A stretch of DNA of 64,000 bases from a virus. The DNA is taken from positions 1 to 64,000 of IMG/VR virus record IMGVR_UViG_3300033145_000733, one strand, 5' to 3'. A program made the translations under genes and the position numbers. Below, piece after piece: positions 6,980-22,267 of this stretch. The notes beneath the pieces are model-generated. The model was given only the letters and a program-made list of their open reading frames with translations, did no database searches and was not told the DNA's origin. Position 1 is the first letter of the stretch; every line of letters starts with the position of its first letter.

Positions 6980-7191
6980 TTATTCCCCCTTAATAAATGT
7001 CCCTTTATTAAATCTATACCTTTGCTGGAACACTCATCAATATATTCACTATATGGAATACTCAATATTTCGCCTTGCGTAAAACACCTGAACCTAAATG
7101 GACACTTCTCACAAGAAATACAACAATGCCAAATTTGGCGACATCTATGATAATCTACATCATAATATGTAATGATAAACCTATCATCCAT
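6976..7191 (-). CDS. Cysteine-knuckle protein, 71 aa
   Basis: CRQIWHCCISCEKCPFRFRC is nearly the whole middle of the protein, five Cys before the final FTQ. CEKCPFRFRC is very close to the CxxCPxRxxC core of WhiB-like [4Fe-4S] proteins. The overlap with the next gene (four bases) and with the RNA ligase gene upstream (eight bases) indicates coupled translation. Confidence 0.72.
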   Translation of the reverse strand: MDDRFIITYYDVDYHRCRQIWHCCISCEKCPFRFRCFTQGEILSIPYSEYIDECSSKGIDLIKGHLLRGNK

Positions 7192-8041
7192 TCTTTAGGT
7201 GTTCCTTGAACATCAAGGCTGTCAAACGACCTATCTGTTTGTTGGCATCAGGAGACTCCTTAATTTCTCCTTTTGCCTCACGCATTACATCTTCTATCAT
7301 CAACTCTATTACTTTACCTGTGTTCTCAATTTTAACTTCAACCCCATCTAATACGTGCTTCAGCCTCTCGTAAGTTACCCACTCATTAGCGATGGCTTTC
7401 GCATCCTCTATCATCTTTATTTTCTCTGGTGAGATAACTTTTCGTGGTGTGGAAGTTTCTCTAAATTCATCTCGCTTGTGTTTTGAAATTACACGACTGC
7501 CATTGTTTAGTGTCACTTCCTCTAATGGTCTAATAACAATTCCCTCTCGCATATGACCGACACCAACTCCATTCCGTATTGCCTGAACAGAGTCAGCATC
7601 ACGTTCCGCATCTAATGCCTCAAGAGTGCATGGTACTTTCTTGTAATGCACAAACTCAAGACCAAGCTCTTTGGTGAACGCCTCAGCTTTGGGAACACTA
7701 AGCCACAAATCTCCTATTTTAACTTCAAAAGATATGAACATGAGACTATCACCATAAGTCTTCCTCATGCCCTGTAATTTACCACCATAAGCTTCACCGT
7801 AAACATGAACACTCTTACCTTTTGGTAGTGCCATATCTTTAAATCGTTTCTTTAAATCTTCTTCATCAAACAAGGTGCAAAACGTTTGGTAATTTGAGCC
7901 ACCAGCAAATAGCCCAATATTTTTGTCAGTCTTATATGATATATGTGCTGATGTGCCATGAATTTTTTCCATAGCATAACACTCTTTATACATCAATATT
8001 TGCTGGTCTTTGTATAGATTATCAATATGTAAATATGCCAT
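7184..8041 (-). CDS. ATP-dependent RNA ligase, T4 Rnl2-like
   Basis: Seals breaks in RNA. Nucleotidyl-transferase motifs are in order: I EKIHGT (Lys26 forms the AMP adduct), GEAYGG (82-87), IIIa FISFEV (102-107), IV EGIVIRP (166-172) and V SKHKRDEF (186-193). The C-terminal 90 residues are helical, as in Rnl2. Length 285 is slightly short of T4 Rnl2. It is embedded in a run of knuckle and zinc-ribbon genes. With RtcB elsewhere in the window it suggests the phage repairs tRNA or mRNA cut by host defence nucleases. Confidence 0.9.
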   Translation of the reverse strand: MAYLHIDNLYKDQQILMYKECYAMEKIHGTSAHISYKTDKNIGLFAGGSNYQTFCTLFDEEDLKKRFKDMALPKGKSVHVYGEAYGGKLQGMRKTYGDSLMFISFEVKIGDLWLSVPKAEAFTKELGLEFVHYKKVPCTLEALDAERDADSVQAIRNGVGVGHMREGIVIRPLEEVTLNNGSRVISKHKRDEFRETSTPRKVISPEKIKMIEDAKAIANEWVTYERLKHVLDGVEVKIENTGKVIELMIEDVMREAKGEIKESPDANKQIGRLTALMFKEHLKNG

Positions 8042-8045
8042 TATT

Positions 8046-8231
8046 TTATGTAACCTCTCTATTTAGGTATTCTCTTGCGTAATTTAGTTTCTTAACCATC
8101 AACCTGGCATTATCTTCACATTCTTTATTACCTTCTAAACCACAATCTGCAACCCAATCCCCATTCTCTTTGGCTATACAAATATGTGTACCATCAGGAT
8201 ATTGTTGATATTCTACCTTATATATCAGCAT
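8046..8231 (-). CDS. Hypothetical protein, 61 aa
   Basis: Unrecognised. DGTHICIAKENGDWVADCGL resembles a short beta hairpin; the C-terminal helix is basic. GGGGAG ribosome site. Overlaps the upstream knuckle gene by 14 bases. Confidence 0.55.
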   Translation of the reverse strand: MLIYKVEYQQYPDGTHICIAKENGDWVADCGLEGNKECEDNARLMVKKLNYAREYLNREVT

Positions 8232-8592
8232 TTAACTCCCCAATTAAAATTCCGTATCTATCTTCTTTGCTTGAACCCTGATTATATCTGCCACACACCT
8301 TACACCTAAATTTAGTGTTGTTTGCTAATTGGTGATATGTAACCTTAAACATGCTCTGACAATGGGGACACCGCATTATTCTACATTCTTTTAATGTAAA
8401 GAAATAAGGTTGTATTGTATGCAATTGCTTTGCCGTTGGGTTATCCATAATCAAGATTGACTCTTTTTTAGTTGTATAACACTGAAATCTTATAGGGCAA
8501 TGGTCACAATCTTCATCACAATAACCATCACCAAGTTCTTCACCACCTAGATAATAACTTACTATTCTCACCCGTTCCCACCCGTTAACCAT
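8218..8592 (-). CDS. Cysteine knuckle plus zinc ribbon, 124 aa
   Basis: CDEDCDHCPIRFQCYTTK (residues 25-42) is a knuckle with Pro and Arg as in WhiB cores. A classic ribbon follows: CPHC near 75-78 and CKVC near 97-100. Both suggest a compact metal protein that may bind nucleic acid. Role unknown. Confidence 0.72.
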   Translation of the reverse strand: MVNGWERVRIVSYYLGGEELGDGYCDEDCDHCPIRFQCYTTKKESILIMDNPTAKQLHTIQPYFFTLKECRIMRCPHCQSMFKVTYHQLANNTKFRCKVCGRYNQGSSKEDRYGILIGELNADI

Positions 8593-8782
8593 TCAATTTC
8601 TCTAATGCCCACAACATTTCTGCACCAGTAGCGGGGCGGATTGTAACACTACCCCCATTAAGGAGTTCTATATTGACCTTGCCCCAATCCCATCTTACCT
8701 TAGTGTCTATCTCGTAGATTGAGGACATCATAGTTTGGCTTTTATCGTAAAAATCGTTACCTATATAAAATAGATTTTTCAT
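8585..8782 (-). CDS. Hypothetical protein, 65 aa
   Basis: Begins MKNLFYIGNDFYDKS; the ATG after GAGGAACGT is preferred over the in-frame GTG 15 bases earlier. It has a small beta-rich composition and a GAEMLWALEKLNG helical end. No family recognised. Confidence 0.58.
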   Translation of the reverse strand: MKNLFYIGNDFYDKSQTMMSSIYEIDTKVRWDWGKVNIELLNGGSVTIRPATGAEMLWALEKLNG

Positions 8783-8800
8783 ACGTTCCTCACACACTGT

Positions 8801-9037
8801 TTATCTGTTTGTGTAACATTTAAACCTATGTTGGCAAGCATCACAATCTGGTAGTTCTATCTCGGTACTAAGTTTAACAGGTTCGGCAATTAACGCATTC
8901 TTATTGTGTGTTCTCTGATATGCCTTACCACCAGATATTGCATAACATTTTTTCGTATATGCTTTGGGTAATAAAATCCATGAGGTTTCAAACCCATTAC
9001 AAACTGGTACTATCCAAACCTCGGCTATTATCTTCAT
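8801..9037 (-). CDS. Protein ending in a cysteine knuckle, 78 aa
   Basis: Residues 65-78 are CDACQHRFKCYTNR, the knuckle forming the extreme C-terminus. The N-terminal part is a beta-rich domain with Cys13 and Cys31. The TAATG overlap with the upstream gene, which also ends in a knuckle, makes a tandem pair of knuckle-terminated proteins. Confidence 0.7.
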   Translation of the reverse strand: MKIIAEVWIVPVCNGFETSWILLPKAYTKKCYAISGGKAYQRTHNKNALIAEPVKLSTEIELPDCDACQHRFKCYTNR

Positions 9038-9357
9038 TATCTCTCAGTGAAGCATTTGAACCTGCTCACGCAGTTTTCGCATTCTCCACTATAATGTATG
9101 GCATTTTCACAGATTTTCTTGACAGGGTAGTAAAAATCTGTACTCCACTCAGCAATCAGTTCTTGACTACTCCTTCCGCTACTGCCACCAGTCTTGTAGA
9201 CACGAACAATATCCTTACCACTATCATCATCGTGGTGACATACAACCTTGGCACCCGTATACCACCCTCTTATGTGACCATTGATACCGCTATCTTTTGA
9301 ACCCATCCTTGTAGCTTCACCACGATTACCTTGAACGTCTGCGTAAAAGTGTGCCAT
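9037..9357 (-). CDS. Protein ending in a cysteine knuckle, 106 aa
   Basis: Unknown N-terminal domain (HFYADVQGNRGEATRMGSK, then HIRGWYTGAKVV) followed by CENCVSRFKCFTER as the last 14 residues, with an upstream Cys at 83. GGGGGATTAA is a good ribosome site. The FTER terminus is identical to that of the L12-like fusion protein. Confidence 0.72.
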   Translation of the reverse strand: MAHFYADVQGNRGEATRMGSKDSGINGHIRGWYTGAKVVCHHDDDSGKDIVRVYKTGGSSGRSSQELIAEWSTDFYYPVKKICENAIHYSGECENCVSRFKCFTER

Positions 9358-9406
9358 TTAATCCCCCACAAAAAATCTGTATATGTTCTTGACAATTCTG
9401 AGATTT

Positions 9407-9754
9407 CTACCCATGTTTTAATCTACTTAGCAAATAATCACTGCCACGCATCATCGGGATAACCTTTGGAGTAGGGGTAATTATACTTACCCCCCAAACA
9501 TCCACATCCCCACCACATTTCGGACACTGAGCAAAGTCAAGCCTTTCACAAAATTCTTCACAAGCTCTAAGCCACTTGCTCTGATTCAGGTCACTAAAAT
9601 ATTCCACAGCCTCCGCAGTGACCCCAAGTGCTGTAGGTATGCCATCTTGGTCTTTGACCATAAACATTACACCTTCCAGTAACCTATCCCCAAAGGGGTA
9701 GCCATCAACAAGTACGTGGTCAATTTTTCCACAACTTTCGCACTCTAGTTCCAT
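9407..9754 (-). CDS. Zinc-binding hypothetical protein, 115 aa
   Basis: CESCGK at the N-terminus and CPKCGG near residue 76 form a probable split zinc ribbon. The central part, GVTAEAVEYFSDLNQSKWLRA, is helical. Function unknown. Good ribosome site GAGGAG; TAATG overlap with the upstream gene. Confidence 0.6.
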   Translation of the reverse strand: MELECESCGKIDHVLVDGYPFGDRLLEGVMFMVKDQDGIPTALGVTAEAVEYFSDLNQSKWLRACEEFCERLDFAQCPKCGGDVDVWGVSIITPTPKVIPMMRGSDYLLSRLKHG

Positions 9755-9936
9755 TACTCTCCTCTTGATTTTATGTACTTATCCCAACATTCGGCACCGA
9801 CCACATCATCATCATAACCCTTTTTTGGCTCATGTTCTTCAATGCTTTCACGTGAGTTGTATTCATGCCCACAGACAGCACATTTTTTACCGCTAAGGCT
9901 TAAAGCAACTGTCAACCAAAATAATGGATGCTCCAT
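9754..9936 (-). CDS. Small zinc-finger protein, 60 aa
   Basis: An N-terminal hydrophobic helix (HPLFWLTVALSLSG), then CAVCGHEYNSRESIEEHEP resembling a C2H2-like finger and a final AECW. AGGAGT ribosome site. Unknown role. Confidence 0.55.
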   Translation of the reverse strand: MEHPLFWLTVALSLSGKKCAVCGHEYNSRESIEEHEPKKGYDDDVVGAECWDKYIKSRGE

Positions 9937-9945
9937 ATATTACTC

Positions 9946-10389
9946 CTAGTTACTAATTGTTCTTAGAAAGTCGCATGAACTTCCTTTTGGCAGTCTAATT
10001 ACAAAACTTGTACCATGTTTTACTAAAAACTCAGCCATACATATATTTTCTTTATAATCTGGAAGCTTTGACGTTATCTCAATTAACTGAGCTAGTTCAT
10101 CTGCATAAATAATCACTACTCTTTCAATGGGTACTTGAAGCATACGAATGCTGCCATCATTAACCTTAATCGCAAACATTATTCCCATACCCCCATGAAC
10201 GCTACCACCCCACCCTAAGAAATTTCCGCCAGCACTACCTTGTAACATCGGTATTTCTTTCAATGCAACTAAGTCATAGGGTGCTGTACCCCATGCTTTC
10301 ACAATCTTCTCTTGCACAACCTTCGTTGCCATACCACAACCACTTAGTAATGTTAAAATCAGCAAAAGTAAAAATAATAATCTCTTCAT
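9946..10389 (-). CDS. Putative lipoprotein, 147 aa
   Basis: Signal peptide MKRLLFLLLLILTLLSGC: basic start, Leu-rich core and lipobox L-S-G-C with Cys18 as the predicted lipidation site. The mature part contains glycine-rich loops (GGNFLGWGGSVHGGMG) and beta strands. A phage lipoprotein in an early-type operon could act in superinfection exclusion or lysis control; the sequence does not decide. The start has only a weak ribosome site. Confidence 0.72.
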   Translation of the reverse strand: MKRLLFLLLLILTLLSGCGMATKVVQEKIVKAWGTAPYDLVALKEIPMLQGSAGGNFLGWGGSVHGGMGIMFAIKVNDGSIRMLQVPIERVVIIYADELAQLIEITSKLPDYKENICMAEFLVKHGTSFVIRLPKGSSCDFLRTISN

Positions 10390-10392
10390 TTT

Positions 10393-10533
10393 TTAATTAT
10401 CACCTAGTAACCCTTTTAACTCTTCCAACCTTGTCTTATCTTGTGGCGACATGGTGATAGAACCAACCTGTTCTATTACCACAAAATACTTTTGATATAT
10501 TGCCACCATTTCTCGCAGAATTTCTTCTTCCAT
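10393..10533 (-). CDS. Small coiled protein, 46 aa
   Basis: Acidic, helical (MEEEILREMVAIYQKYFVVI, then DKTRLEELKGLLGDN). Its ATG overlaps the upstream stop as TAATG, after GGTGGTGG. Below 60 residues but well placed in the gene string. Confidence 0.5.
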   Translation of the reverse strand: MEEEILREMVAIYQKYFVVIEQVGSITMSPQDKTRLEELKGLLGDN

Positions 10534-11021
10534 TACCACCACCTTTTTGCTATTTTTTCATTCCTGTGAAATCTTAGTGGGTCACGCACAAACACTCGGC
10601 TTTCACTGGGTTTTTCATGTTGTGATGTGTAGCATTGAAACCTATCTGGGCAGCTTTCACAGATTGTCAAAACTTCTAAATTAAGTTTTTCTCTTATCTC
10701 CGAATGTGATTTGCCCCTACATTCCTTACAAAGTGGAACAATAAAATTACAAGTATTTACCTCATCAAATGTTAAACGTTCTATCGTGGTGGGGAATAAA
10801 TTTACACCTTTAACCAAACCACAACAAGCACAAAGTACCATCCGTTCACGTTCTCTTTCATTCTTACGGCAAGATGCACATATTGGTTTTATTACAGTTT
10901 TGCCATGCTCCACCATTGTATATGGGCGAACAGTATCATGGACAAAACCACAAATACTACACCAGCCTATCTTGTGCTTAATTGCTTTTTCATTCGTTGG
11001 TATTTGTCCCAATAAAGTCAT
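10533..11021 (-). CDS. Multi zinc-ribbon protein with cysteine knuckle, 162 aa
   Basis: Four metal-type sites in order: CSIC and CASC (about 21-24 and 48-51), CACC (64-67) with CKEC (98-101), and the knuckle CESCPDRFQCYTSQ (119-132). The first two pairs look like HNH-associated or recombination-type ribbons, but no nuclease histidines are evident. The C-terminal tail is basic. Function unknown; nucleic-acid binding likely. Confidence 0.72.
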   Translation of the reverse strand: MTLLGQIPTNEKAIKHKIGWCSICGFVHDTVRPYTMVEHGKTVIKPICASCRKNERERERMVLCACCGLVKGVNLFPTTIERLTFDEVNTCNFIVPLCKECRGKSHSEIREKLNLEVLTICESCPDRFQCYTSQHEKPSESRVFVRDPLRFHRNEKIAKRWW

Positions 11022-11510
11022 TTAACTTCTCACCTTTGTAGTCAAACATTTGAAACGTTTATCACACTTCATACAAATTTCAGTTTCACCAAGCGGTATT
11101 GCCTCAATGGTTACTCTCAAAAATTTACCAGTATTGTGCTTTAATATTTCAGTTATATCCTGAAACTTGTTATAGATTATCATTCCGTAATGGCGTGAGT
11201 CGTCTTTAGGAAACATTGGACAACCAAGATAGTGATATATTTCCATAAGTCTGCCACGTTCATCGCTGTCAACTTCATCTTCATCCTCACCCACAAATCC
11301 TTCAATCTCAACAGGAAGCGTGGCAATAATTTGACTCTCTGCACACAGTTTCTTTATCTTAATTTGTCTTAGTCGTTCTCTAGGTTCTTGAACCAAGTCT
11401 ACCTGTCCATTTTTTATCGTGCCAAGTTTTGACAACTCTTTTTCAAGGGCAGTTATTTCAATATGCATTTCGTTAATCAGTTCAATAGCTTTTTGCCTAG
11501 TTTCGTTCAT
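11022..11510 (-). CDS. Coiled coil with C-terminal cysteine knuckle, 162 aa
   Basis: Residues 1-55 form a heptad-rich coil (AIELINEMHIEITALEKELS). An acidic middle (GEDEDEVDSDERG) follows, and the protein ends CMKCDKRFKCLTTKVRS. The knuckle is again nearly terminal. It lies just downstream of the VWA gene, separated by six bases, so it may be co-expressed with the VWA/MoxR pair. Confidence 0.7.
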   Translation of the reverse strand: MNETRQKAIELINEMHIEITALEKELSKLGTIKNGQVDLVQEPRERLRQIKIKKLCAESQIIATLPVEIEGFVGEDEDEVDSDERGRLMEIYHYLGCPMFPKDDSRHYGMIIYNKFQDITEILKHNTGKFLRVTIEAIPLGETEICMKCDKRFKCLTTKVRS

Positions 11511-11516
11511 TTAGGT

Positions 11517-13220
11517 TTAATCATTCTCCATTATGATTATCTTACCAATCTTGGAACTCCAGCCACCAGTATAGTGATTTGGTGTCATTACCCATATAGT
11601 AGGACATGGTATCTTTTTTGGATAAGTCCCTGCCCCATCTGTGCAGTATATTATCCCATCTACTTTTTGTTTTAGTTTGAACGTTTCGCCATTTCCATTC
11701 TTGTATACCATCTTGTCCACAAACCTGAATACAGGAGTAAAGTCTGTTCCACCATAACCGTAACGCTTTATGCCTTCACTCTTTGGTGGTTTTCTCTTGT
11801 ATGGCTGAACATGGGTAATATCAGCATCACATTCCACATGGGTTAAGCTGATGCCAGCTTTGAACATTGCTCCCATTTCTTTCCAGAACATAGCGAATTC
11901 TTTATCATCAACACTGCCAGAACTATCAGTTGCCACCACAAAATGAGCTTTACGTTCAACTTTGTAGCCTGGAAATACTACAGGAAATCGTCTATTTAGC
12001 CTTTTTCTGGTGCTTACAAAGTGCGAGAATTCACGGAAACCATAAAATCTACGTAATTCAGATTTCCAAGTTATAGTTTTATGTTCAAGACATTCGTCAA
12101 TAAGACCCTTTAACCAACCTGGCATGTATCCCTGAGACTTCTCATTAACCTTATGGACAGCTTTCTTAACCATTTCCTTAATTTTTTCGTGTGCCATTTC
12201 CTTGTTATCACTACCTGCTGCCCACGCTTGATGGTTATCCATTGGCATTGGTATCTTTGTTCCGTTTACATCTACACCACACCCACTACCAGTTTTTGGT
12301 GACTCGGTTTTAGAGGTCTGATCTCCACCACTGCCATCATTACTCTCTTTTTGAGTGTAGCTACCATCACCCTTACCGCTTCCACCACTGCCACTCTGTT
12401 TACCATCACCCTCTTGATTACCTAAACTATTCTTATCTTTTTTACCAGCACCTTCTTGCCCTTGCCCTTCTTGCCCTTGCCCCTGTCCACTGCCATTCTG
12501 CTGACCATCTTGACCCTGACCATCTTGACCCTCTTGACCCATGTTATCTTTTGCCGCTTTTTCCTGTTTACCAGTAATATTACTCCCAATTTCAATTATG
12601 TATTTTGGAATTTTACTCCACAAAATATCATAATAAAGCTCAGAAGCCTTTTCACTTTCAAGAGTAATCTTTTTATCCTCAATCCTAAAATTGTGAATAT
12701 CAAGAGGTTCAAATACATGTGTATCAGGGCTGAGTACCATATTACATACTGGACATTTGGTACGAAACTGACCTGATGATGTTTTCCTCACAAATATATT
12801 ACATTCTGGACACATGCCACCATACGGTAGTCCTTTAATATACTGGTTTATCGCAAGGTCATTTGCCAAATTCCAGATATAATGATTACGGTTCTCTACA
12901 CGTAGTAGGTGCTTATTGAGAATATGAAGTATTTCATGCTCAAGAACAGCTATTTTCTCTTCTGCCGTTAACCCCCATGTTTGTGCGCCAGGATTACTTT
13001 TGTCGTAATCACCACTATTATAGAATTGTCTGTTAATGAATAGATGCGGTTGTAATTCATCACTTATCATCACAGCAAGTGTTGAAATTACTTGCCCCGC
13101 ACCTACAGTAGACTTGCTATCAACGCTGTGTCGCCTAAATTGTTGTAGCAGATGCCCATAAAAATGCTTATGTTGCAATAATAGTTCTATTACTTCTGGC
13201 TCAATTAGTTCTTTTACCAT
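11517..13220 (-). CDS. HExxH metallopeptidase-like and VWA-like protein (DUF2201 type)
   Basis: N-terminal putative zinc peptidase domain with HEILH at 95-99. A zinc ribbon CPEC (137-140) and CPVC (156-159) follows, then a low-complexity G/Q/S linker of about 90 residues (224-312). The C-terminal VWA-like domain has DSSGS at 432-436 as MIDAS and GGTDFTP further on. This architecture matches bacterial DUF2201 proteins, which are encoded beside MoxR AAA+ ATPases; such an ATPase is the next gene upstream. The pair probably forms a chaperone-like remodelling machine. Its phage substrate is unknown. Confidence 0.85.
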   Translation of the reverse strand: MVKELIEPEVIELLLQHKHFYGHLLQQFRRHSVDSKSTVGAGQVISTLAVMISDELQPHLFINRQFYNSGDYDKSNPGAQTWGLTAEEKIAVLEHEILHILNKHLLRVENRNHYIWNLANDLAINQYIKGLPYGGMCPECNIFVRKTSSGQFRTKCPVCNMVLSPDTHVFEPLDIHNFRIEDKKITLESEKASELYYDILWSKIPKYIIEIGSNITGKQEKAAKDNMGQEGQDGQGQDGQQNGSGQGQGQEGQGQEGAGKKDKNSLGNQEGDGKQSGSGGSGKGDGSYTQKESNDGSGGDQTSKTESPKTGSGCGVDVNGTKIPMPMDNHQAWAAGSDNKEMAHEKIKEMVKKAVHKVNEKSQGYMPGWLKGLIDECLEHKTITWKSELRRFYGFREFSHFVSTRKRLNRRFPVVFPGYKVERKAHFVVATDSSGSVDDKEFAMFWKEMGAMFKAGISLTHVECDADITHVQPYKRKPPKSEGIKRYGYGGTDFTPVFRFVDKMVYKNGNGETFKLKQKVDGIIYCTDGAGTYPKKIPCPTIWVMTPNHYTGGWSSKIGKIIIMEND

Positions 13221-13426
13221 TTACTATCCTTTCAGTATTAGGTTGGTTGTTAACATTTCCATTTCAAAGCCACGTGAATTAACTTACCTAATACCGACCT
13301 TTGGGTAAAGTAGAATAAATCTGCCTCTGGAACAGCTAAGCCAACAAAGACTTTTCTTTGTTGGAAGTTCGCCTATAGACTTATAGATACTCTACCCAAT
13401 GTCATACTCCCAAATGTAACTGCCAT
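13221..13426. other. Intergenic region between MoxR and VWA genes
   Basis: About 200 bases with no supported frame. It contains a perfect 10-bp hairpin at 13341-13364, and a wider imperfect pairing of TTGGGTA near 13308 with TACCCAA near 13395. It lies between two genes expected to be expressed together, so it may adjust their ratio through RNA structure or processing. Confidence 0.45.
13341..13364. repeat. Perfect 10-bp hairpin, 4-base loop
   Basis: CCAACAAAGA and TCTTTGTTGG around CTTT. No T-tract follows on either strand, so it is more likely an RNA-processing or translational element than a simple terminator. Confidence 0.55.
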
Positions 13427-14605
13427 TTATCCGATGTCACCCTTTCTTGCGTGCTTTAAAATCATAAACAAATCATCACGTTTAAGCAACAGCCGCTCAT
13501 TCATATCATTGTTTAGAGCAAGGTCTTTAAGCACCGAGAATGCCAAATCTTCTGGTAGAAGTACAAAGAAATCGCCAAGATTACCGAGTTGCTTCTCGTT
13601 ATACTTAGTTGATTTGGCGCCAGTTAAACACTGGTTAATTTCGTCTAGTGTAATTCGTAACAAATCAAATCTAGTATTTCCTTCGCCAGATTCCACCTGT
13701 GACAAAACCCTATCCCTAATCTTGGGGAAACTGTTGAATATTTCAGCCGCTTTAAGTGGTTTGTCCAGTTCGGTTTTAAGAGATTGAATAAAAGCAATAG
13801 CTGCCGTTGGACCAATTACCGTCTCGGCAACCTCTGTCCAGTATTTCTTTGGTATTGTGTTGCCACCCAGAAGTTTGTGTAGAAACTCATAAGAACGTGG
13901 AGATGGCGTAATTTCTACAGGAATATCTATTGCATCATTGCCAAGAAATTTAGTATCTGTAGCAATGAAGTCAATAATATCTTGCAACATCCCATATTCA
14001 CGTGCCCATTTCAACCAATTATCCGTAGTCAAAGTAAATTTCATGTTGACAAACCTATCTAGGAGAGCAGGGTCAATTTCTTCTACGTTATACTCTTGAC
14101 CAGTGCCAGCATCAGTTGATGGTGGATTACAAGCGCATACAATAGCACAATCATCGGGAATTTTATGAGTGTGTATTCTGCGGTCAAGCACAATCTGAAA
14201 TGCCGCTTGTTGCACATCAAGACGACCACGATTAAACTCGTCAAAGAATATGCAACGCTTCTCGCCGTTTGATGGAAACCATGATGGTGCTAACCAAATT
14301 GTCCTACCCACTATCGGTATTCGTGCCTGGTCTTGCTGTTCGCACATCGGACAATAAGCAGTTTTTATGCCAAAACCATATTTAGTTTGACACTTTGGAC
14401 AGTAATATTCTTGTGCTGGCATTCCAATCAAATCACCAACCTCAAGTTGCCCAAGTCTAAGGTCAATAACCTCATAACCTAACGCCTCAAACACTTCTCT
14501 GGTAATCATACTCTTACCAATACCATGTCTGCCCCATAACATCGGGGTTAGGTTGACTTGCGAACACCTTTGTAGTATCAGTTGCACCAGCTCAATGTTT
14601 TCCAT
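13427..14605 (-). CDS. MoxR-type AAA+ ATPase with inserted zinc ribbon
   Basis: Walker A GRHGIGKS (residues 25-32), Walker B CIFFDEFNR (118-126) and a sensor-1 CNPP in a CACNPPS stretch are typical of MoxR ATPases. Between them sits an unusual four-Cys ribbon, CPKC (69-72) and CPMC (85-88). The ATG at 14605 is chosen because GGGAG lies at suitable distance; a GTG nine bases upstream is in frame. It is the first gene after the promoter at 14631 and the partner of the VWA/HExxH protein. Confidence 0.87.
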   Translation of the reverse strand: MENIELVQLILQRCSQVNLTPMLWGRHGIGKSMITREVFEALGYEVIDLRLGQLEVGDLIGMPAQEYYCPKCQTKYGFGIKTAYCPMCEQQDQARIPIVGRTIWLAPSWFPSNGEKRCIFFDEFNRGRLDVQQAAFQIVLDRRIHTHKIPDDCAIVCACNPPSTDAGTGQEYNVEEIDPALLDRFVNMKFTLTTDNWLKWAREYGMLQDIIDFIATDTKFLGNDAIDIPVEITPSPRSYEFLHKLLGGNTIPKKYWTEVAETVIGPTAAIAFIQSLKTELDKPLKAAEIFNSFPKIRDRVLSQVESGEGNTRFDLLRITLDEINQCLTGAKSTKYNEKQLGNLGDFFVLLPEDLAFSVLKDLALNNDMNERLLLKRDDLFMILKHARKGDIG

Positions 14606-14630
14606 AAATATCACTCTCCCACTTTCTTAT

Positions 14631-14659
14631 ATTATACCATAAGCCGTTATTATTGTCAA
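14631..14659 (-). promoter_or_regulatory. Promoter of the GGCTTATGG family
   Basis: TTGACA, spacer of 17 ending GGCTTATGG, TATAAT. Drives the MoxR-VWA operon. It overlaps the last codons of the upstream gene. Confidence 0.85.
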
Positions 14660-15198
14660 GCTTTATCTTCGGCTATTTTAAACCACCCATCAAAGGTTTC
14701 ATCGGTCAACTTTGGAATTTTAGTAAGATTAGCTACTTGTTTTTTTGCTATGTTATTGAACACTCTTATTTGCCCCAAACTAAATGGTCTACTATCAGAC
14801 CTAGACATTATATCAGCAACAAGATGATTAGCCCTAAATCCCAAGTCCAAATCCTTTAGCCGATAACCAAGTTTTCTTGTTGCCACTTGCTCAAATACCT
14901 TATCATCACCAGTGACACAAGCATCAATATAGATACCTGTGGCTAAACTTTTCTGTGGGTCTGATAAAGTTCCAGTTTTCTCTACGTAAGCCATTAAACT
15001 ATCAACTAAACTTCGCATCCAGGGCAAGTGTTGCTTAGTTTCTTCTAACCTATCCCAAAGTGTTTTATTGCCTGGAACAGTGAAAAACTCCTTTAAGCTA
15101 TCTTCTTTATCTTTGCCAGTGAAACCCTCACCAATCGGAACATGGCGTTTAGGTTTACCCATCTTCCAATTTTTAGCTCTCATTTTTATCCGTGTCAC
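14656..15198 (-). CDS. Hypothetical protein, 180 aa
   Basis: Unrecognised helical protein with a basic N-terminus (TRIKMRAKNWKMGKPKRH). GTG start preferred because AAGGA lies four bases upstream; ATG five codons later is the alternative. It overlaps the upstream gene by 26 bases. Its 3' end overlaps the -35 box of the next promoter. Confidence 0.62.
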   Translation of the reverse strand: MTRIKMRAKNWKMGKPKRHVPIGEGFTGKDKEDSLKEFFTVPGNKTLWDRLEETKQHLPWMRSLVDSLMAYVEKTGTLSDPQKSLATGIYIDACVTGDDKVFEQVATRKLGYRLKDLDLGFRANHLVADIMSRSDSRPFSLGQIRVFNNIAKKQVANLTKIPKLTDETFDGWFKIAEDKA

Positions 15199-15556
15199 CT
15201 AATCCTTCTAATCCTTCTAAATCGCCACCCTTTAACAAATTTCCCATCATATCAGTAAATTTACTCAATACTACGGTACTATCAATTCCAGCATTTATAA
15301 TATTAAGCAATAGCATATATTCCAACGCCATTGATACTGATACAGAATTTGGGTCTCCAACCATCACTGCCCCAACAGCAAATTTATTTGCCCTTTCTAC
15401 GATGTATTGAAATAGAATAGGATTTTTATCATGCAAATTCTGTAGTTCGTCATTAAGCCAATTCTTAATAGCCCCTTTCGTAACTTGCTCAGTGAGTATA
15501 TTTAACTGTTTCGTAATTTGCTCTTCGTCAATTTTTGGTAGGTGCTCTAACGTCAT
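15173..15556 (-). CDS. Hypothetical protein, 127 aa
   Basis: Helical (EQITKQLNILTEQVTKGAIK), with a Gly/Leu/Glu-rich tail (LKGGDLEGLEGLGDTD). The ATG at 15556 follows GAGG by eight bases and overlaps the preceding TGA (ATGA); the longer frame would run into the upstream small gene. Function unknown. Confidence 0.6.
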   Translation of the reverse strand: MTLEHLPKIDEEQITKQLNILTEQVTKGAIKNWLNDELQNLHDKNPILFQYIVERANKFAVGAVMVGDPNSVSVSMALEYMLLLNIINAGIDSTVVLSKFTDMMGNLLKGGDLEGLEGLGDTDKNES

Positions 15557-15678
15557 GCTACAATCCTCATTATGCACATTATAAAAGCAAATTGGATACT
15601 TGGGTCACACAGAATTGATAGCCTATTACGACCATTTGTATTAAGACGAGATAAAAAATTAAACACCGTATAAATCAT
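15553..15678 (-). CDS. Small protein, 41 aa
   Basis: MIYTVFNFLSRLNTNGRNRL, then a hydrophobic C-terminal half (IQFAFIMCIMRIVA) that could insert in the membrane. It has an excellent TTGGAGG ribosome site and an ATGA overlap with the next gene, so translation is likely. Confidence 0.5.
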   Translation of the reverse strand: MIYTVFNFLSRLNTNGRNRLSILCDPSIQFAFIMCIMRIVA

Positions 15679-15768: not shown

Positions 15769-16092
15769 CTAATTTGTGCGAAAATATCCTAAAATATCTT
15801 CTTGTAATTTATTCTTTTCCTGCATTTTAGTCATGGCTTGCACTTGTAATGTCTGTGAGTAACTTCGTATTACAATATGAATGATATTGACAAACGCAAG
15901 CACACCATAAATAATACCAACACCTTTCAATGCTGTTATAAATGTCAAGGGAACTGCAATTGATAATGCCGCAACACATAGTACGTTCCACACAAGCATT
16001 AACAATCCAGCAAATGCACAAGCAATACCACCTAGCAATAAAATTGCTAGTAAGATACCAGCCAGCATCACGAACACTTTAGAACCTTTCAT
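15769..16092 (-). CDS. Membrane protein, 107 aa
   Basis: At least two, probably three, transmembrane segments (about 5-28, 33-54, 57-73), then a Gln/Lys-rich cytoplasmic helix. Lies directly downstream of Ku. No family recognised; a holin-like role is conceivable but the tail is unusual. Confidence 0.6.
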   Translation of the reverse strand: MKGSKVFVMLAGILLAILLLGGIACAFAGLLMLVWNVLCVAALSIAVPLTFITALKGVGIIYGVLAFVNIIHIVIRSYSQTLQVQAMTKMQEKNKLQEDILGYFRTN

Positions 16093-16104: not shown

Positions 16105-16848
16105 CTATTTATTTACTAGTGCCTTTAACGCATCTTCCAAGTTCTGCCGAGGTTCTTGTGTGGTGGCTACTGGAATTACCTCACCAGCGAGCTTCTTTGT
16201 TGCCATCATGTTTAGTGTGTCAAGGTACTTATCTGAATAGTCCTCATGGTTAAATGTTTTAGAATACTTGCCGATAACCTGCGTTATTAGGTCAACCTGC
16301 TCATTAGTGGTTTGAGGTTTCTTCACTTGTGGGGCTGGTTGTATCTCGCTATTCCAGAACATAGTAGAGAGAACCAACCCATCATTTACAAGCCGAATAG
16401 CACATAGATTTTCTCGCTGTGCTATTGCCACCTTTCCAATAGCAACCTTGCCGAGCTTCTTCATACCTTCCAAGAGAAGGTTAAAAGCATTTTCTGCCCC
16501 GACTTCCTGTGGAGAAAGGTAATAGCCAGTATCAAATGTTAGTGTGTCGAGTTCCGTTGCGTCAACAAATCGGTCAATTTCAATATTCTTCGTAGTGGAG
16601 AGTGGAAGACTGGCGAGTTCCTCTTTACTGAAGGTTACTACATTGCCCTTACTTACCTCAAGACCCTTGACAATATCTTCTGTGATAAGTTCCTTGCCGC
16701 AAGCTTTACAGATTTTCTTTCTGCCACCAGCACCCATATCTTCCTTGTGATATTCGTGCAGGTTACTCTTAGCTTCCCTTGCCACATTGTCCAGCTTAAC
16801 AGGAATGAGGAACATTCCGCCGATTGAGATAGACATTTTCCTTGCCAT
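16105..16848 (-). CDS. ku: Ku DNA end-binding protein (bacterial/phage type)
   Basis: Homodimeric ring that threads onto double-strand ends. ISIGGMFLIPVKLD at the start, then DIVKGLEVSKGNVV (58-71), STTKNIEIDRFVD, TGYYLSP and KVAIGKVAIAQRENLCAIR follow the bacterial Ku core closely. A CKAC pair at 47-50 forms a zinc-knuckle half. Length 247 equals the Ku core with almost no basic C-terminal tail, so the LigD-recruiting extension is minimal. A DNA ligase gene lies 2.7 kb upstream in the same direction. The AAAGGAGAATAAA ribosome site is strong. Confidence 0.93.
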   Translation of the reverse strand: MARKMSISIGGMFLIPVKLDNVAREAKSNLHEYHKEDMGAGGRKKICKACGKELITEDIVKGLEVSKGNVVTFSKEELASLPLSTTKNIEIDRFVDATELDTLTFDTGYYLSPQEVGAENAFNLLLEGMKKLGKVAIGKVAIAQRENLCAIRLVNDGLVLSTMFWNSEIQPAPQVKKPQTTNEQVDLITQVIGKYSKTFNHEDYSDKYLDTLNMMATKKLAGEVIPVATTQEPRQNLEDALKALVNK

Positions 16849-16849
16849 T

Positions 16850-17251
16850 TTATTCTCCTTTGTTACCCCTTATCAATTTTTCTATGGCTAGGCAGAGAGC
16901 AAGGGCAGGATTATTTTTATCTTTACCATCAAATGTCTTGCCTTCTTCCACTCCAACAAACGCAATATATTCCTTCTTTTTGTTCCAGTTATTTAATTGA
17001 AACCAACTTAGCTTTGGCACTAGCCACTTAAAGCAGGCATCCAGGGATTGCGTGAAAAGGTCGGAGATAGTTTCGTGGTGATAGTAAGTCCCCACTTCCA
17101 GAACACACTCGCCCAATCCCTTTTCAACAAAAAGCCTAGCTTCCTCAGTAAAAAGTCGCTCAATCCGAATAGAGTCACCGACTTCTACTAGAAAATCAGA
17201 TGGTGGAAATAAAAACTCTGCCAGCTTCTTGTTTAGTTTCTGTTCATCCAT
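16850..17251 (-). CDS. Hypothetical protein, 133 aa
   Basis: Contains ACFKWLVPKLSWFQ, and near the end NNPALALCLAIEKLIRG, an arrangement like phage ABA-sandwich proteins (DUF2591 type). This is a weak resemblance. It sits one base upstream of Ku and is likely co-translated with it. Good GGAG ribosome site. Confidence 0.6.
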   Translation of the reverse strand: MDEQKLNKKLAEFLFPPSDFLVEVGDSIRIERLFTEEARLFVEKGLGECVLEVGTYYHHETISDLFTQSLDACFKWLVPKLSWFQLNNWNKKKEYIAFVGVEEGKTFDGKDKNNPALALCLAIEKLIRGNKGE

Positions 17252-17273
17252 TATTTTTCTCCATCATACTGTT

Positions 17274-17381
17274 TTAATCAACGTAAACAGTAGATTTATC
17301 TTCTTCGTGGCAAACTGGACAACCCTCTGAGAAGCTATGACTATACCAAATTTCACCACATTTACAGATATGCTCATACAT
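17274..17381 (-). CDS. Mini zinc ribbon, 35 aa
   Basis: MYEHICKCGEIWYSHSFSEG then CPVCH: C-x-C and C-x2-C make a minimal rubredoxin-like ribbon. It is the first frame after the promoter at 17406, 25 bases from the -10 box. The composition and placement favour a real gene despite its size. Confidence 0.5.
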   Translation of the reverse strand: MYEHICKCGEIWYSHSFSEGCPVCHEEDKSTVYVD

Positions 17382-17405
17382 AATAGGTTACACCCCCATT
17401 ATCTA

Positions 17406-17434
17406 ATTATACCATAAGCCGTATCAAATGTCAA
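17406..17434 (-). promoter_or_regulatory. Promoter of the GGCTTATGG family
   Basis: TTGACA, 17-base spacer ending GGCTTATGG, TATAAT. Reads into the mini-ribbon gene, the 133-aa gene, Ku and the membrane protein, so Ku is first expressed from this site. The -35 box overlaps the stop of the upstream gene. Confidence 0.87.
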
Positions 17435-18126
17435 GTTTTATTTACTTTTCTCATTTCATAGATAAGTAATAATCTTGCCGTGTGTGAATTGACTCCCTTA
17501 TTATCAAATGTGCGTTTTATTATTATAGTTTGTGGCGTGTCCCATGTATAATTACTGATTGCTTTAGTATCATCGTTGGTGAGTTTCCAAACAGTGCCAC
17601 CAAATCTTGCATACCACACTTGCCTAAATTCGTAACCGAAACCAATTGTGCCCATTTTACGTCTTAAACTTTGAAGTCGCAGTAATTCATCATTACGTTT
17701 CTTATCCGCCATCCTTATTTTAGCTTCTTCTCTTTGGTTGTCAATACTCTTTACTAATGGAGCATTGTAATCGCCATCATCTACATTACCAGTCCAGCAA
17801 TTAAATACACTTTTACAATTATCACAGCAAACATCTAACCCATCGGGAGAGTAGAAGTCACCTACCAATCTTTGCCTACAATCAGGATGAACAATAATGT
17901 TTGGTTCAGGTCGTTCAGTATTATTAAATCCAGCATAACCACGACTATAGCCACCACGACTATTGACTTTTTTCTTACTTTTGTTGGTTAAATGCCAATT
18001 AGATGCACCACAATTGGGGCATTTCATTTTATCCATTATTAAGTGTGAAAAGGCAAATTTCTTTGACGCATCACGTTCAGCCAAAGTAGTAAAATCTTTT
18101 TTGCATCTATTACAGTGAAATTTCAT
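17431..18126 (-). CDS. Zinc ribbon plus divergent cysteine knuckle, 231 aa
   Basis: N-terminal ribbon CNRC (5-8) and CPNC (36-39), a basic G/R/S linker, then CCDNCKSVFNCWTG near 100-113, in which the usual Arg-Phe is Val-Phe. The C-terminal 100 residues (IGFGYEFRQVWYARFGGTVW) look beta-rich and are unrecognised. The stop of the upstream gene overlaps as TAATG. Role unknown. Confidence 0.68.
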   Translation of the reverse strand: MKFHCNRCKKDFTTLAERDASKKFAFSHLIMDKMKCPNCGASNWHLTNKSKKKVNSRGGYSRGYAGFNNTERPEPNIIVHPDCRQRLVGDFYSPDGLDVCCDNCKSVFNCWTGNVDDGDYNAPLVKSIDNQREEAKIRMADKKRNDELLRLQSLRRKMGTIGFGYEFRQVWYARFGGTVWKLTNDDTKAISNYTWDTPQTIIIKRTFDNKGVNSHTARLLLIYEMRKVNKT

Positions 18127-18326
18127 TATGCCAATATAAAGTTCTTATCTTTATCCCTTACACACATTACTCCCGCATCATTGCCCTCACTATCACTGGA
18201 AGCATAAAGTAATACACCATTGCTCAACACAATGATTACTGTGCCACGACACCACCCCTCATTTTCTAATTCACCACTGGTCATTGGTCTTACCTTGACA
18301 ACAGTTTGCCCAACAATATTATCCAA
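18126..18326 (-). CDS. Hypothetical protein, 66 aa
   Basis: TTG start supported by GAGGTGG at correct spacing, 17 bases downstream of the promoter's -10 box. Beta-rich sequence (VKVRPMTSGELENEGW). Unknown. Confidence 0.58.
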   Translation of the reverse strand: MDNIVGQTVVKVRPMTSGELENEGWCRGTVIIVLSNGVLLYASSDSEGNDAGVMCVRDKDKNFILA

Positions 18327-18663
18327 TTTCCACCTCTTTACCTATTATATCATAAGCCACCATTTTTGTCAAGTCTGGATTTACTCCCTTAATTTCAAGA
18401 TACCATTGAATTATTTCACCTAATGTTGGTCTTTCCGATGGTAATGGCATCTTGACTATTTCATCGGCAAAGTTTATTCTAATAGCATCGCCAGTGTAAC
18501 ATCTGAATTTTAATTTACACGTATTGCAAACATCTGTATCTTTGCCCAAACATCTATTATCAAGCAATATTTCATACTCGTCAAATACTAAGATTATCTC
18601 TTTGCCAGGTTTTTCCTTTAATTCCCTGACTTTTATTTTAACATCATTGCCACTATCTTTCAT
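18319..18663 (-). CDS. Cysteine-knuckle protein, 114 aa
   Basis: Central CLGKDTDVCNTCKLKFRCYT (C-x7-C-x2-C-x5-C) after a basic beta-rich domain; the C-terminus is helical (TLGEIIQWYLEIKGVN). AGGAG ribosome site. The next promoter is contained in its 3' end. Confidence 0.7.
   Translation of the reverse strand: MKDSGNDVKIKVRELKEKPGKEIILVFDEYEILLDNRCLGKDTDVCNTCKLKFRCYTGDAIRINFADEIVKMPLPSERPTLGEIIQWYLEIKGVNPDLTKMVAYDIIGKEVEIG
18344..18372 (-). promoter_or_regulatory. Promoter of the GGCTTATGA family
   Basis: TTGACA, 17 bases ending GGCTTATGA, TATAAT, located inside the end of the knuckle gene. Serves the 66-aa gene and the zinc-ribbon/knuckle gene. Confidence 0.82.
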
Positions 18664-18710
18664 CTTAACTACTCCTATCTGTAATTATCACAGTGCCACT
18701 ACTCTCACTA

Positions 18711-19058
18711 TCAACTCCTATGAACCGCACTTATTAAATCGGTAATATGAAGATATACGGCTATGTTATCAGCTTTACCTAGTGGTTGATACGCCTGACC
18801 ACCACCTTTCTCCTTCCGATTTTTTGCCCTACCTCTCTTTTTAATTCTCCATATGTCTTTATTAAGATATTTATTCAGTAGTGATAGGAAAAGTTTGCCT
18901 TCATCATCATTGGTAACATAGAATGACCACTTTGGTATATTTAAATCATCAGTATCATATCTACGTGAAAAGCACTGAAATCTGCCATCACACTTATCAC
19001 ATTTCCTCATTCTAGTGGGGTGTAGTATCTGGCATTTAGATATGTCTTTTTCTTTCAT
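18711..19058 (-). CDS. Cysteine-knuckle protein, 115 aa
   Basis: CQILHPTRMRKCDKCDGRF, then QCFSRR, at residues 9-33. Here Thr of the motif is Ser. A strongly basic middle follows (KKRGRAKNRKEKGGG), suggesting nucleic-acid contact. The start overlaps the end of the upstream gene by four bases. Confidence 0.7.
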   Translation of the reverse strand: MKEKDISKCQILHPTRMRKCDKCDGRFQCFSRRYDTDDLNIPKWSFYVTNDDEGKLFLSLLNKYLNKDIWRIKKRGRAKNRKEKGGGQAYQPLGKADNIAVYLHITDLISAVHRS

Positions 19059-19324
19059 AGGTTTTTATTTCTTAATTGCTCAAAAAATGATTGATTTGAA
19101 TTCCAATCAATGTCACCATCAAACTTCTGGCTGAGAAGACTTTTTATATCTTCTCTGACTCTTTTTAAAGCCCCTTCTATAGAATACTTATATTTCTCAC
19201 CCATGTAACTTTCAAATAAAGCTTGTATCATTGGTTCGGCAAATACTTTTATATTAGTAAAGCATTTAAATCTTTCGGGGCAAGAACTGCACAAACATTT
19301 ACGTTTCATTTTATTGTCCAACAC
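19055..19324 (-). CDS. Cysteine-knuckle protein, paralogue of the 348 gene
   Basis: N-terminal CLCSSCPERFKCFTN (C-x-C-x2-C-x5-C), then KVFAEPMIQALFESYMGEKY, aligning with KVFSDPARQAFYEAHLAEGF in the gene ending at 348. The first Cys is separated by one residue in both. This is the best evidence that knuckle genes duplicate within the phage. Confidence 0.72.
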   Translation of the reverse strand: MLDNKMKRKCLCSSCPERFKCFTNIKVFAEPMIQALFESYMGEKYKYSIEGALKRVREDIKSLLSQKFDGDIDWNSNQSFFEQLRNKNL

Positions 19325-19512
19325 CTAAATCTAAAGGTACATACTTTACATGCCTTTTTAGAGTGTGTATAGAAATTATAATAGTACCTAAGTCCATCAT
19401 GTTCTCTATATTCTTTAACTTTATTCCATATTAAGTTTCGGCATTGCTTTATAATACCATCTGTTGGTATTATTCCCATATTTTCTGTAAACTTAACCTT
19501 TGTTAGTTTCAT
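19306..19512 (-). CDS. Protein ending in a cysteine knuckle, 68 aa
   Basis: Basic, aromatic N-terminal part, then CKVCTFRFRCWTIK as the last 14 residues. Overlaps the upstream ligase gene by four bases and the next knuckle gene by 19, so three knuckle genes follow the DNA ligase in tight succession. Confidence 0.7.
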   Translation of the reverse strand: MKLTKVKFTENMGIIPTDGIIKQCRNLIWNKVKEYREHDGLRYYYNFYTHSKKACKVCTFRFRCWTIK

Positions 19513-20438
19513 TTTACTGTGTCTATATGCTCCACTGTCTTATCAAGGCGAATATCCCTAAATTGTGGATGCCGTAATGAGTTGATGCTACCATCTGGAT
19601 TACGTATTACCCCATTATATTTTACCTTTACCACAATTTTTGGTTCAACATAAGTCTCGTCACCTTTATGCCCTGTCACCATACCACTTAATACAGTGAG
19701 CATAGTTTCCTTCATTACAGTCTTAGACCCAAAGCCACCACCAACATAAGACAATGGAATTATTTCACCATTTACCCTATGCCCAACTAAAACAGAAAGC
19801 ACCTTTGCTCTTTTAGTTCCAGACTGGAAGCCGATGATAACAAAATCACCCTCAGTTTCAAACTTACGCTTTGTCCATTCACGTGTTACGCCATTGATAT
19901 ATTTTGACTCTGGGGTTTTCGCAATAATCCCCTCATATCCACCATCAACTACCATCTGGTATAAATCATCTAACTCTTCTTGGTCGGCAACCATAACACT
20001 AGGAACAAGCACCGCATTTGGAGTGTAGAATTTCAGTTTCTCTAGGAACTCTCTAGTTGCCGCATAATCTAAGTTATTCCAAAGTTGGTGTCCCGCATAC
20101 TTGAGACAGCCAAAAAACCCAAGACTACAATTAGGGTCAAGTTTGTGCCTAGCAAAGTCATAAAAATCTTTACCACCACCCCAAACAAGCTCTGCCAAGA
20201 AAACGCTATCATCTGGAATTTTATCCTCAAGTTCATCGAGAATAGGCATCTCTACTCGTATCCTACCATGCTCTGGCTTATTAGCAAGATAGAGTTTACC
20301 TTTTTGCTTGATAACGTATTGAAACTCCCCATCAAGTTTTATCTCTGCCCGACAAGGGTAGGTGAACCCTTGTCCTTCTATCTCCATGAATGGGAGTCCA
20401 GCATAAAGCGAGCTAGTTTTATCTTGGTATGTTTTCAT
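19509..20438 (-). CDS. ATP-dependent DNA ligase (LigD-ligase/phage type)
   Basis: Seals nicks using ATP. Motif I EIKLDGE (Lys34 is adenylated), motif III AELVW around Glu83, IV GYEGIIAK (167-174), V WTKRK (188-192), then an OB-fold end (SVLVGHRVNGEIIPLSYVGG, with HPQFRDIRL). At 309 residues it is the minimal two-domain form, like the ligase domain of LigD. With Ku downstream in the same direction it could complete a phage-encoded end-joining system. No primase or phosphoesterase domain is present. Confidence 0.92.
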   Translation of the reverse strand: MKTYQDKTSSLYAGLPFMEIEGQGFTYPCRAEIKLDGEFQYVIKQKGKLYLANKPEHGRIRVEMPILDELEDKIPDDSVFLAELVWGGGKDFYDFARHKLDPNCSLGFFGCLKYAGHQLWNNLDYAATREFLEKLKFYTPNAVLVPSVMVADQEELDDLYQMVVDGGYEGIIAKTPESKYINGVTREWTKRKFETEGDFVIIGFQSGTKRAKVLSVLVGHRVNGEIIPLSYVGGGFGSKTVMKETMLTVLSGMVTGHKGDETYVEPKIVVKVKYNGVIRNPDGSINSLRHPQFRDIRLDKTVEHIDTVK

Positions 20439-21103: not shown

Positions 21104-22267
21104 TTATCCACCCGCCTTAAAGTTATACACTGGCTTCATAAAGAACTCAATGTCCACCGTCTCCCCGATAGCCCCAATAATTTCATCTTTATCTTTGTAT
21201 GCCATCGGTGCTTCATCTATAGTATTTTGTGTTGCGGTGGTAGTATAAACACCTTCCATTTCCTTTATAAACTCGTCAAGGTCTAATCTCTTTTTAGCTT
21301 GGCTTCTGGACATTACCCTTCCTGCTCCGTGTGGTGCTGATAAGTTCCATTTATTGCTACCTTTGCCAACACCTATCATTACACCATCACGCATATTGAA
21401 AGGAATAACTAAACGTTCTCCTAGATGTGCCGACACTGCTCCCTTACGGATAATCTTGTCATCAAAGTTGATATAGTTATGGACTGTTTCAATGCCTCTC
21501 ATATCAAAATCAGTTTTCGCTTCGAAGAAATTGAAAATTAACAGTCCCGCCATCACTTGTCTGTTCAAACTAGCATATTCTTGGGCTATTTTCATATCAT
21601 CAAGATACTCTTTGCCACCCATGTCCATAGGTAGATACTCCAAATCCTTGTAAGCATCTGCCCCCAAAAACATTCTCTTGAGCAGTTCTTTAGCTTTGTT
21701 TTGGTGATATGTTGCAACTCGTAACCCGAAATTCCTGCTACCAGAATGTATTAAGAGCCAATATTGTCCATTATCATCTTGGTCAATCTCAATGAAATGA
21801 TTACCACCACCAAGTGTGCCAATAGAACCTATTACCTTGCTTTCATCTTGTTTCAGGTCATTAGCAAGTGCCAATACTTTTTTACGAAAGTTATCATCAA
21901 ACATATCTTGGGGTTTTGCTTGGTTTGCCATCCGCCCACTGGTGCTTCTAATGTTAAAGCCACTTGGAATGTGTGTTCTTATAAAATGGTCTAGGTGTTC
22001 AAAATTAACGGTTGTTACATCAAGTGGGTAAGCATTTACGCCACAACCAATGTCCACACCTACCACATTCGGTATAACATAATCATTCATCTTCATAGTA
22101 AAACCAATGCAACTACCAGCACCAGCATGAGCATCTGCCATAATTGCTATATGTGTCTTAGCAAACGCAGGATGATTGAGAAACGAGTAAATTTGGCTAA
22201 CAGTTGTCTCGTCAAGGTTATCAATCATTATTATTGCCGTATTGTATTTACCTTTAATTGTATACAT
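21104..22267 (-). CDS. rtcB: RtcB RNA ligase (3'-phosphate type)
   Basis: Joins RNA 2',3'-cyclic or 3'-phosphate ends to 5'-OH using GTP. Metal ligands: DAHAG (45-49), DIGCGV with Cys75, GGGNHF (153-158), HSGSR (174-178). The guanylylated His is His313 in APHGAGR. At 387 residues it is a compact phage-like RtcB. No archease gene is seen. It forms a complementary pair with the Rnl2-like ligase, which needs 5'-phosphate and 3'-OH ends. The TAATG junction couples it to the upstream knuckle gene. Confidence 0.94.
   Translation of the reverse strand: MYTIKGKYNTAIIMIDNLDETTVSQIYSFLNHPAFAKTHIAIMADAHAGAGSCIGFTMKMNDYVIPNVVGVDIGCGVNAYPLDVTTVNFEHLDHFIRTHIPSGFNIRSTSGRMANQAKPQDMFDDNFRKKVLALANDLKQDESKVIGSIGTLGGGNHFIEIDQDDNGQYWLLIHSGSRNFGLRVATYHQNKAKELLKRMFLGADAYKDLEYLPMDMGGKEYLDDMKIAQEYASLNRQVMAGLLIFNFFEAKTDFDMRGIETVHNYINFDDKIIRKGAVSAHLGERLVIPFNMRDGVMIGVGKGSNKWNLSAPHGAGRVMSRSQAKKRLDLDEFIKEMEGVYTTTATQNTIDEAPMAYKDKDEIIGAIGETVDIEFFMKPVYNFKAGG

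What the first reader, a model, noticed from the sequence alone, without database searches (positions are those of the whole stretch)
16105..20438. Phage-encoded Ku plus ATP-dependent DNA ligase: a possible two-gene end-joining system
Ku (16105) has almost no C-terminal tail, and a minimal ligase (19509) with all adenylation motifs lies upstream in the same direction. Mycobacteriophages Omega and Corndog carry Ku but use host LigD. Here both parts are on the phage, possibly for genome circularisation.
Basis: partly seen in the sequence, partly recalled or inferred. Interest (0 to 1): 0.78.

Follow-up and report, generated by a model that had tools for sequence, protein, structure and literature searches.

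The report
Phage-borne Ku and DNA ligase pair
A previously undescribed group of large environmental phages carries, side by side, the two proteins that bacteria use to glue broken DNA ends together (Ku and an ATP-dependent DNA ligase), so these viruses may bring their own complete break-repair kit instead of borrowing half of it from the host.

Summary
A true bacterial-type Ku (16105-16848, -) and a minimal ATP-dependent DNA ligase (19509-20438, -) lie in one co-directional gene run, about 2.7 kb apart. The pair is not an accident of this contig. Four related phages carry both genes in the same order, under purifying selection. A fifth co-linear complete relative keeps the flanking genes but lacks Ku, this ligase and any other recognisable DNA ligase. 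The ligase is therefore dispensable for replication in the group and was gained or lost together with Ku. One correction: Ku lacks only the extended basic tail and keeps the conserved 'minimal' C-terminal segment known to stimulate ligation. No LigD polymerase domain was found in the three genomes searched. Repair of breaks in phage DNA is more likely. Phage Ku is known from mycobacteriophages that are thought to use host LigD; a phage carrying both parts was not found in the isolate collection or papers searched. I call it a new variant of a known kind. Ku-ligase cooperation is inferred; nothing biochemical is shown.

The parts
16105..16848 (-). Ku, 247 aa: full bacterial Ku core plus minimal C-terminal segment, no extended tail
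   Evidence: PF02735 E=4.5e-38; TIGR02772 199.8 bits, cut-off 150; orthologues 79, 64 and 57% identical; dN/dS 0.08-0.17
19509..20438 (-). Minimal ATP-dependent DNA ligase, 309 aa: nucleotidyltransferase plus OB-fold only
   Evidence: PF01068, PF04679; best NCBIfam match TIGR02779 NHEJ_ligase_lig, 87.5 bits, below its 227.75 cut-off; orthologues 86, 58 and 56% identical
17431..18126 (-). gp231: Cys-rich protein found between ligase and Ku in all four Ku-bearing genomes and not found in Ku-less G020; candidate third component, function unknown
   Evidence: Alignment A8, 41-50% identity; co-occurrence
18319..18663 (-). gp114: Cys-motif protein between ligase and gp231 in all four; a relative exists in Ku-less G020, so not specific to the pair
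18711..19512 (-). Three small Cys-motif ORFs (19306-19512, 19055-19324, 18711-19058) that overlap each other and the ligase stop; content varies between relatives
18126..18326 (-). 66-aa ORF between gp114 and gp231, without the Cys motif
16850..17251 (-). 133-aa ORF directly before Ku; no counterpart found in the relatives, so not part of the conserved unit
15769..16092 (-). 107-aa probable membrane protein directly after Ku; recognisable relatives in G001 and G021
11517..15577 (-). Conserved downstream flank (134 aa, 180 aa, AAA ATPase, VWA/DUF2201 protein) shared with Ku-less G020; marks the syntenic site
21104..22267 (-). RtcB RNA ligase, upstream flank shared with Ku-less G020; no match in Ku-bearing G021
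   Evidence: PF01139 E=2.7e-67

Best explanation
The two genes are an accessory, phage-borne version of bacterial two-component non-homologous end joining. Inferred mechanism: Ku homodimers thread onto broken DNA ends, shield them and hold two ends together. The Ku core and its retained minimal C-terminal segment contact the small ligase directly, with no LigD polymerase domain involved, and the ligase seals ligatable ends. The most likely use is rescue of double-strand breaks in phage DNA (host nucleases, collapsed forks, damage before a second copy is present for RecA), not a compulsory genome-circularisation step. Shown here: identity of both proteins, intact catalytic core, conserved linkage, joint presence and absence, purifying selection, no LigD polymerase domain found. 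Inferred: physical interaction, stimulation of the ligase, and the biological occasion.
For: Ku passes the Ku_bact equivalog cut-off and the ligase's best curated family is the NHEJ LIG domain. Ligase and Ku are co-directional, with mostly overlapping or closely spaced genes between. Both occur in the same order in G001, G002 and G021. Co-linear circular relative G020 (TerL 71%, PolA 52%) keeps the genes on both sides but has no Ku, no ATP ligase and no NAD ligase, so neither gene is needed for replication or packaging in the group. No LigD primase-polymerase domain in G000-G002, with controls ringing. dN/dS 0.08-0.17 for Ku, 0.09 for ligase in the one unsaturated pair. For M. tuberculosis, Ku without its extended tail still stimulates ligation and Ku core binds the isolated LIG domain (PMC9638933). 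The phage also carries RNA repair enzymes RtcB and an Rnl2-like ligase, which fits a repair or counter-defence lifestyle.
Against: The ligase is below the TIGR02779 cut-off and its best solved-structure matches by sequence are archaeal-type replicative ligases. Linkage could reflect general early-gene clustering; only one gain or loss event is visible. Between the genes lie up to seven small ORFs, and gp231 could be the real partner of either protein. Ku's synapsis hairpin (GLVN in M. tuberculosis Ku) is changed to GG-x-F-L with one extra residue in all four phages. Host unknown, so host LigD or LigA cannot be excluded as partner.
Confidence: 0.55

Rival explanations
1. Genome circularisation: Ku and ligase join the two ends of the injected linear genome, as proposed for mycobacteriophages Omega and Corndog.
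For: Phage Ku is implicated in circularisation of genomes with 4-base 3' extensions (PMC3706429, PMC4351075). A virus with its own ligase would not depend on host LigD.
Against: G002, G021 and G020 end in overlaps of 193 (imperfect), 114 and 127 bp. Contigs break at different points of one circular map, and every break is spanned by another genome, so no fixed end is visible. RecA is encoded. G020 lacks both genes yet has the same map.
Confidence: 0.15
2. Two unrelated neighbours: the ligase serves replication or nick repair, as in many large phages, while Ku only protects ends (as Mu Gam does) or works with host LigD or LigA.
For: ATP-dependent ligases are common in jumbo phages (PMC7824862). 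Mu Gam protects ends (PMC1378119) and is reported to promote end joining with E. coli ligase (cited in PMC8136500). Closest solved structures by sequence are replicative-type.
Against: Both genes are present in four genomes and absent in the fifth; G020 replicates without any recognisable DNA ligase. Ku keeps the segment that in bacteria stimulates ligation.
Confidence: 0.22
3. A larger complex in which gp231 (and perhaps other Cys-motif proteins) is the bridging or recruiting factor between Ku and the ligase.
For: gp231 lies between ligase and Ku in all four Ku-bearing genomes and no match is found in Ku-less G020.
Against: gp231 is the least conserved of the block (41-50% identity). Many Cys-motif proteins are scattered over these genomes.
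Confidence: 0.08

Closest known systems
Bacterial two-component NHEJ (Ku + LigD)
   Same: Bacterial-type Ku with core and minimal C-terminal segment; partner ATP-dependent ligase encoded nearby
   Different: Ligase is LIG-only and far below LigD or NHEJ_ligase cut-offs; no polymerase domain found; no extended Ku tail; altered synapsis hairpin; carried by phages
Mycobacteriophage Ku (Omega gp206, Corndog gp87; clusters J and O)
   Same: Ku encoded by a tailed phage
Phage Mu Gam
   Same: Phage-encoded Ku-fold end binder used with a ligase
   Different: The window protein matches the Ku family and no Gam family in Pfam; it brings its own ligase
Stand-alone bacterial LIG-only ligases (LigC type, e.g. 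Rhizobium plasmid ligase L070:5693-6757)
   Same: Ligase and OB domains without polymerase; can sit next to Ku genes
   Different: About 24% identity; the Rhizobium locus also has full LigD

Membership tests
Bacterial Ku (TIGR02772 / PF02735) | Scores above curated family cut-off over the full core | tested here: met
   199.8 bits against 150; PF02735 131.5 against 25
Bacterial Ku (TIGR02772 / PF02735) | Minimal C-terminal segment after the core | tested here: met
   D239 and L244 invariant in nine Ku
Bacterial Ku (TIGR02772 / PF02735) | Extended basic C-terminal tail (variable, not strictly defining) | tested here: not met
   Protein ends directly after the minimal segment
Bacterial Ku (TIGR02772 / PF02735) | Homodimer that threads onto DNA ends | not testable with these tools
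   AlphaFold model too poor (pLDDT 45)
LigD / NHEJ ligase | LIG domain above NHEJ ligase cut-off | tested here: not met
   Best match is TIGR02779 but 87.5 against 227.75 bits
LigD / NHEJ ligase | Primase-polymerase domain, fused or separate | tested here: not met
   PF21686 absent from G000-G002; B. subtilis control rings; G000 is a fragment
ATP-dependent DNA ligase | Motifs I, III, IV, V, VI and OB-fold | tested here: met
   motif Ia divergent
Mycobacteriophage-type NHEJ circularisation | Linear genome with short fixed cohesive ends | tested here: inconclusive
   Circular maps with different break points argue against it; virion ends not sequenced
Mycobacteriophage-type NHEJ circularisation | Use of host LigD | not testable with these tools
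   Host unknown; no related Ku or ligase found by the pattern scan of genome contigs
Mu Gam | Match to Gam family | tested here: not met
   Pfam scan returned only Ku

The most novel reading that the evidence does not exclude
A self-sufficient viral end-joining machine of a distinct architecture: Ku without extended tail and with a redesigned synapsis hairpin, a LIG-only ligase and a Cys-rich third protein (gp231), working without any polymerase domain to re-join phage DNA cut by host defences.
Probability: 0.2. Interest if true: 0.8.

Novelty: new variant of a known kind. Interest (0 to 1): 0.58.

Why it matters
It would be a virus-borne end-joining kit with both parts present, and possibly the smallest natural Ku-ligase pair. 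It would show how a polymerase-free ligase can be served by Ku's core and minimal tail, a point debated for bacterial NHEJ. If it repairs cuts made by restriction or CRISPR nucleases, it would be an error-prone counter-defence and a source of illegitimate recombination in large phages. A compact Ku-ligase pair could also be a useful laboratory end-joining tool.

Tried and rejected
AlphaFold2 of ligase (pLDDT 33) and Ku (pLDDT 45) from 3-row alignments: unusable, so no fold search was made. Search for bacterial relatives and a host: no related Ku or ligase among 84,980 species genomes by pattern scan; no tRNA, no Rfam hit. TerL has almost no relative among phage isolates, one 23% match, so packaging type could not be read from TerL kinship. 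Thirteen further TerL-bearing contigs gave no Ku or ligase but most are short fragments, and even the 71-kb one need not reach the locus, so this is uninformative. Fecal 'Bacteriophage sp.' MT838252 with Ku is a GC-rich fragment that also encodes an Fpg-like protein, probably bacterial contamination. PADLOC: no defence-system match. NAD ligase as a replacement: none in G000, G001, G002, G020 or G013. A ligase family tree was not built: about 22-24% identity to LigD-type sequences is too low.

Full report
Observation. The window is 64 kb of a 66.5-kb virus record. The Ku protein (247 aa) covers the whole Pfam Ku domain and passes NCBI's equivalog cut-off for bacterial Ku (199.8 against 150 bits). 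The ligase (309 aa) has the C-terminal part of the adenylation domain and the OB-fold above their Pfam cut-offs. Motifs I, III, IIIa, IV, V and VI can be read in the alignments; motif Ia is divergent. Its best curated family is the NHEJ ligase domain TIGR02779, but at 87.5 bits against a cut-off of 227.75, so I do not file it as LigD. By profile its best solved relatives are archaeal-type ligases.

Correction to the observation. Alignment with three bacterial plasmid Ku proteins and two mycobacteriophage Ku proteins shows that the phage Ku is not tail-less. It stops right after the conserved minimal C-terminal segment (PRQNLEDALKALVNK), in which D239 and L244 are identical in all nine sequences. 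Only the extended basic tail is missing. In M. tuberculosis the minimal segment is sufficient to stimulate ligation, and Ku core binds and stimulates the isolated ligase domain (PMC9638933). A Ku of this shape with a ligase lacking the polymerase domain is therefore a workable combination. A second difference: residues 12-15 of M. tuberculosis Ku (GLVN), the hairpin needed for end synapsis (PMC12784962), are GLVx in nearly all bacterial and mycobacteriophage proteins aligned, but GG-x-F-L, one residue longer, in all four phages of this group. Its meaning is unknown.

Relatives. Ku finds two related viral contigs, G001 (148 kb) and G002 (153 kb); a second query adds G021 (134 kb). All three carry the ligase upstream of Ku on the same strand. 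[quoted passage not shown] Identities to the window are 79, 64 and 57% for Ku and 86, 58 and 56% for the ligase. dN/dS is 0.08-0.17 for Ku and 0.09 for the one ligase pair that is not saturated. Genes between ligase and Ku mostly overlap or are closely spaced, the widest gaps being about 180-220 bp, which suggests but does not prove joint transcription.

A natural comparison. G020 (149 kb) was reached through RtcB. It is co-linear with G001 over structural and replication genes (TerL 71%, PolA 52%) and keeps RtcB on one side and the 134-aa/180-aa/AAA/VWA genes on the other. Between them it has no Ku, no ligase and no gp231; whole-genome searches find no Ku, no ATP ligase and no NAD ligase. The ligase is thus not essential for replication in this group, and Ku, ligase and gp231 appear to come or go together. 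This is at most one or two evolutionary events, so it is suggestive, not statistical proof. Finding the ligase within five genes upstream of Ku by chance in one roughly 250-gene genome would be about 2%, and the four genomes are not independent.

Polymerase and other repair genes. No LigD primase-polymerase domain was found in G000, G001 or G002, while the B. subtilis control rings. Besides Ku and ligase the phages encode RecA, family A DNA polymerase, DnaB helicase, a DnaG-like primase, a PD-(D/E)XK nuclease, RtcB and an Rnl2-like RNA ligase. Homologous recombination is therefore available to them.

Circularisation. Omega-type phages have 4-base 3' extensions, and Ku is thought to help circularise the genome (PMC3706429, PMC4351075). 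Here G002 ends overlap by 193 bp with two mismatches, G020 by 127 bp exactly and G021 by 114 bp exactly. In G001 coordinates the contigs break near 0, between 42 and 54 kb, between 67 and 71 kb, and between 26 and 33 kb, and each break is spanned by another genome, including the window's own contig across the G001 break. This is what circularly permuted or circular DNA gives. It speaks against a shared fixed end, though circles formed from cohesive ends could assemble the same way, so it is not decisive. I therefore rank break repair above circularisation.

Known or new. Among 50,697 phage records, Ku is found in mycobacteriophages and one GC-rich, probably bacterial fragment. A survey reported 11 Ku-bearing phages without requiring a ligase (PMC8136500), and a Ku phylogeny lists 11 viral Ku, ten from mycobacterial phages and one from a Streptomyces phage (PMC11936186). 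I found no paper describing a phage with both parts, but only open-access text was searched. The host is unknown.

Verdict. A real, conserved, phage-borne Ku-ligase pair; most likely a minimal end-joining system for phage DNA breaks. It works like bacterial NHEJ by inference; the Ku is a member of the bacterial Ku family, the ligase is not shown to be a member of LigD.

Noticed in passing
window 348-728, 718-1017, 2891-3430, 4002-4298, 5374-5829, 8218-8592, 10533-11510, 17431-19512 and others; G001, G002, G020, G021: A short motif C-x2-C-x2-R-F-x-C-[WYF]-T recurs in many different small proteins: 18 in the window contig, 30, 41, 26 and 53 in G001, G002, G021 and G020 (expected about 0.1 per genome in shuffled proteins). 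In G020, 31 of 53 carry it at the very C-terminus in long tandem gene runs. Ten sampled proteins have no PHROG match and no Pfam family above its cut-off. It may be a metal-binding tag or docking motif; a genome-wide repeated tag of this kind is unexplained and may be more novel than the finding itself.
   Followed up: partly
G001 7674-10427 and 146192-147625: Intein-like insertions (read by eye) in the VWA protein and in a Cys-motif protein of G001; absent from the window and G002 copies.
   Followed up: no
window 7184-8041 and 21104-22267: An Rnl2-like RNA ligase and RtcB in the same phage: two different RNA end-joining enzymes besides the DNA ligase. RtcB of G001 is split into two ORFs (16660-17208, 17220-17846).
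   Followed up: partly
window 11517-14614: AAA ATPase plus VWA/DUF2201 pair (MoxR-VWA-like) conserved in all five genomes; no PADLOC match.
   Followed up: partly
window 55022-61672 region and G001 42-54 kb: Sugar and glycosyltransferase genes (aminotransferase, sialyltransferase-like, glycosyltransferases) sit soon after terminase and portal; content differs between relatives.
   Followed up: no
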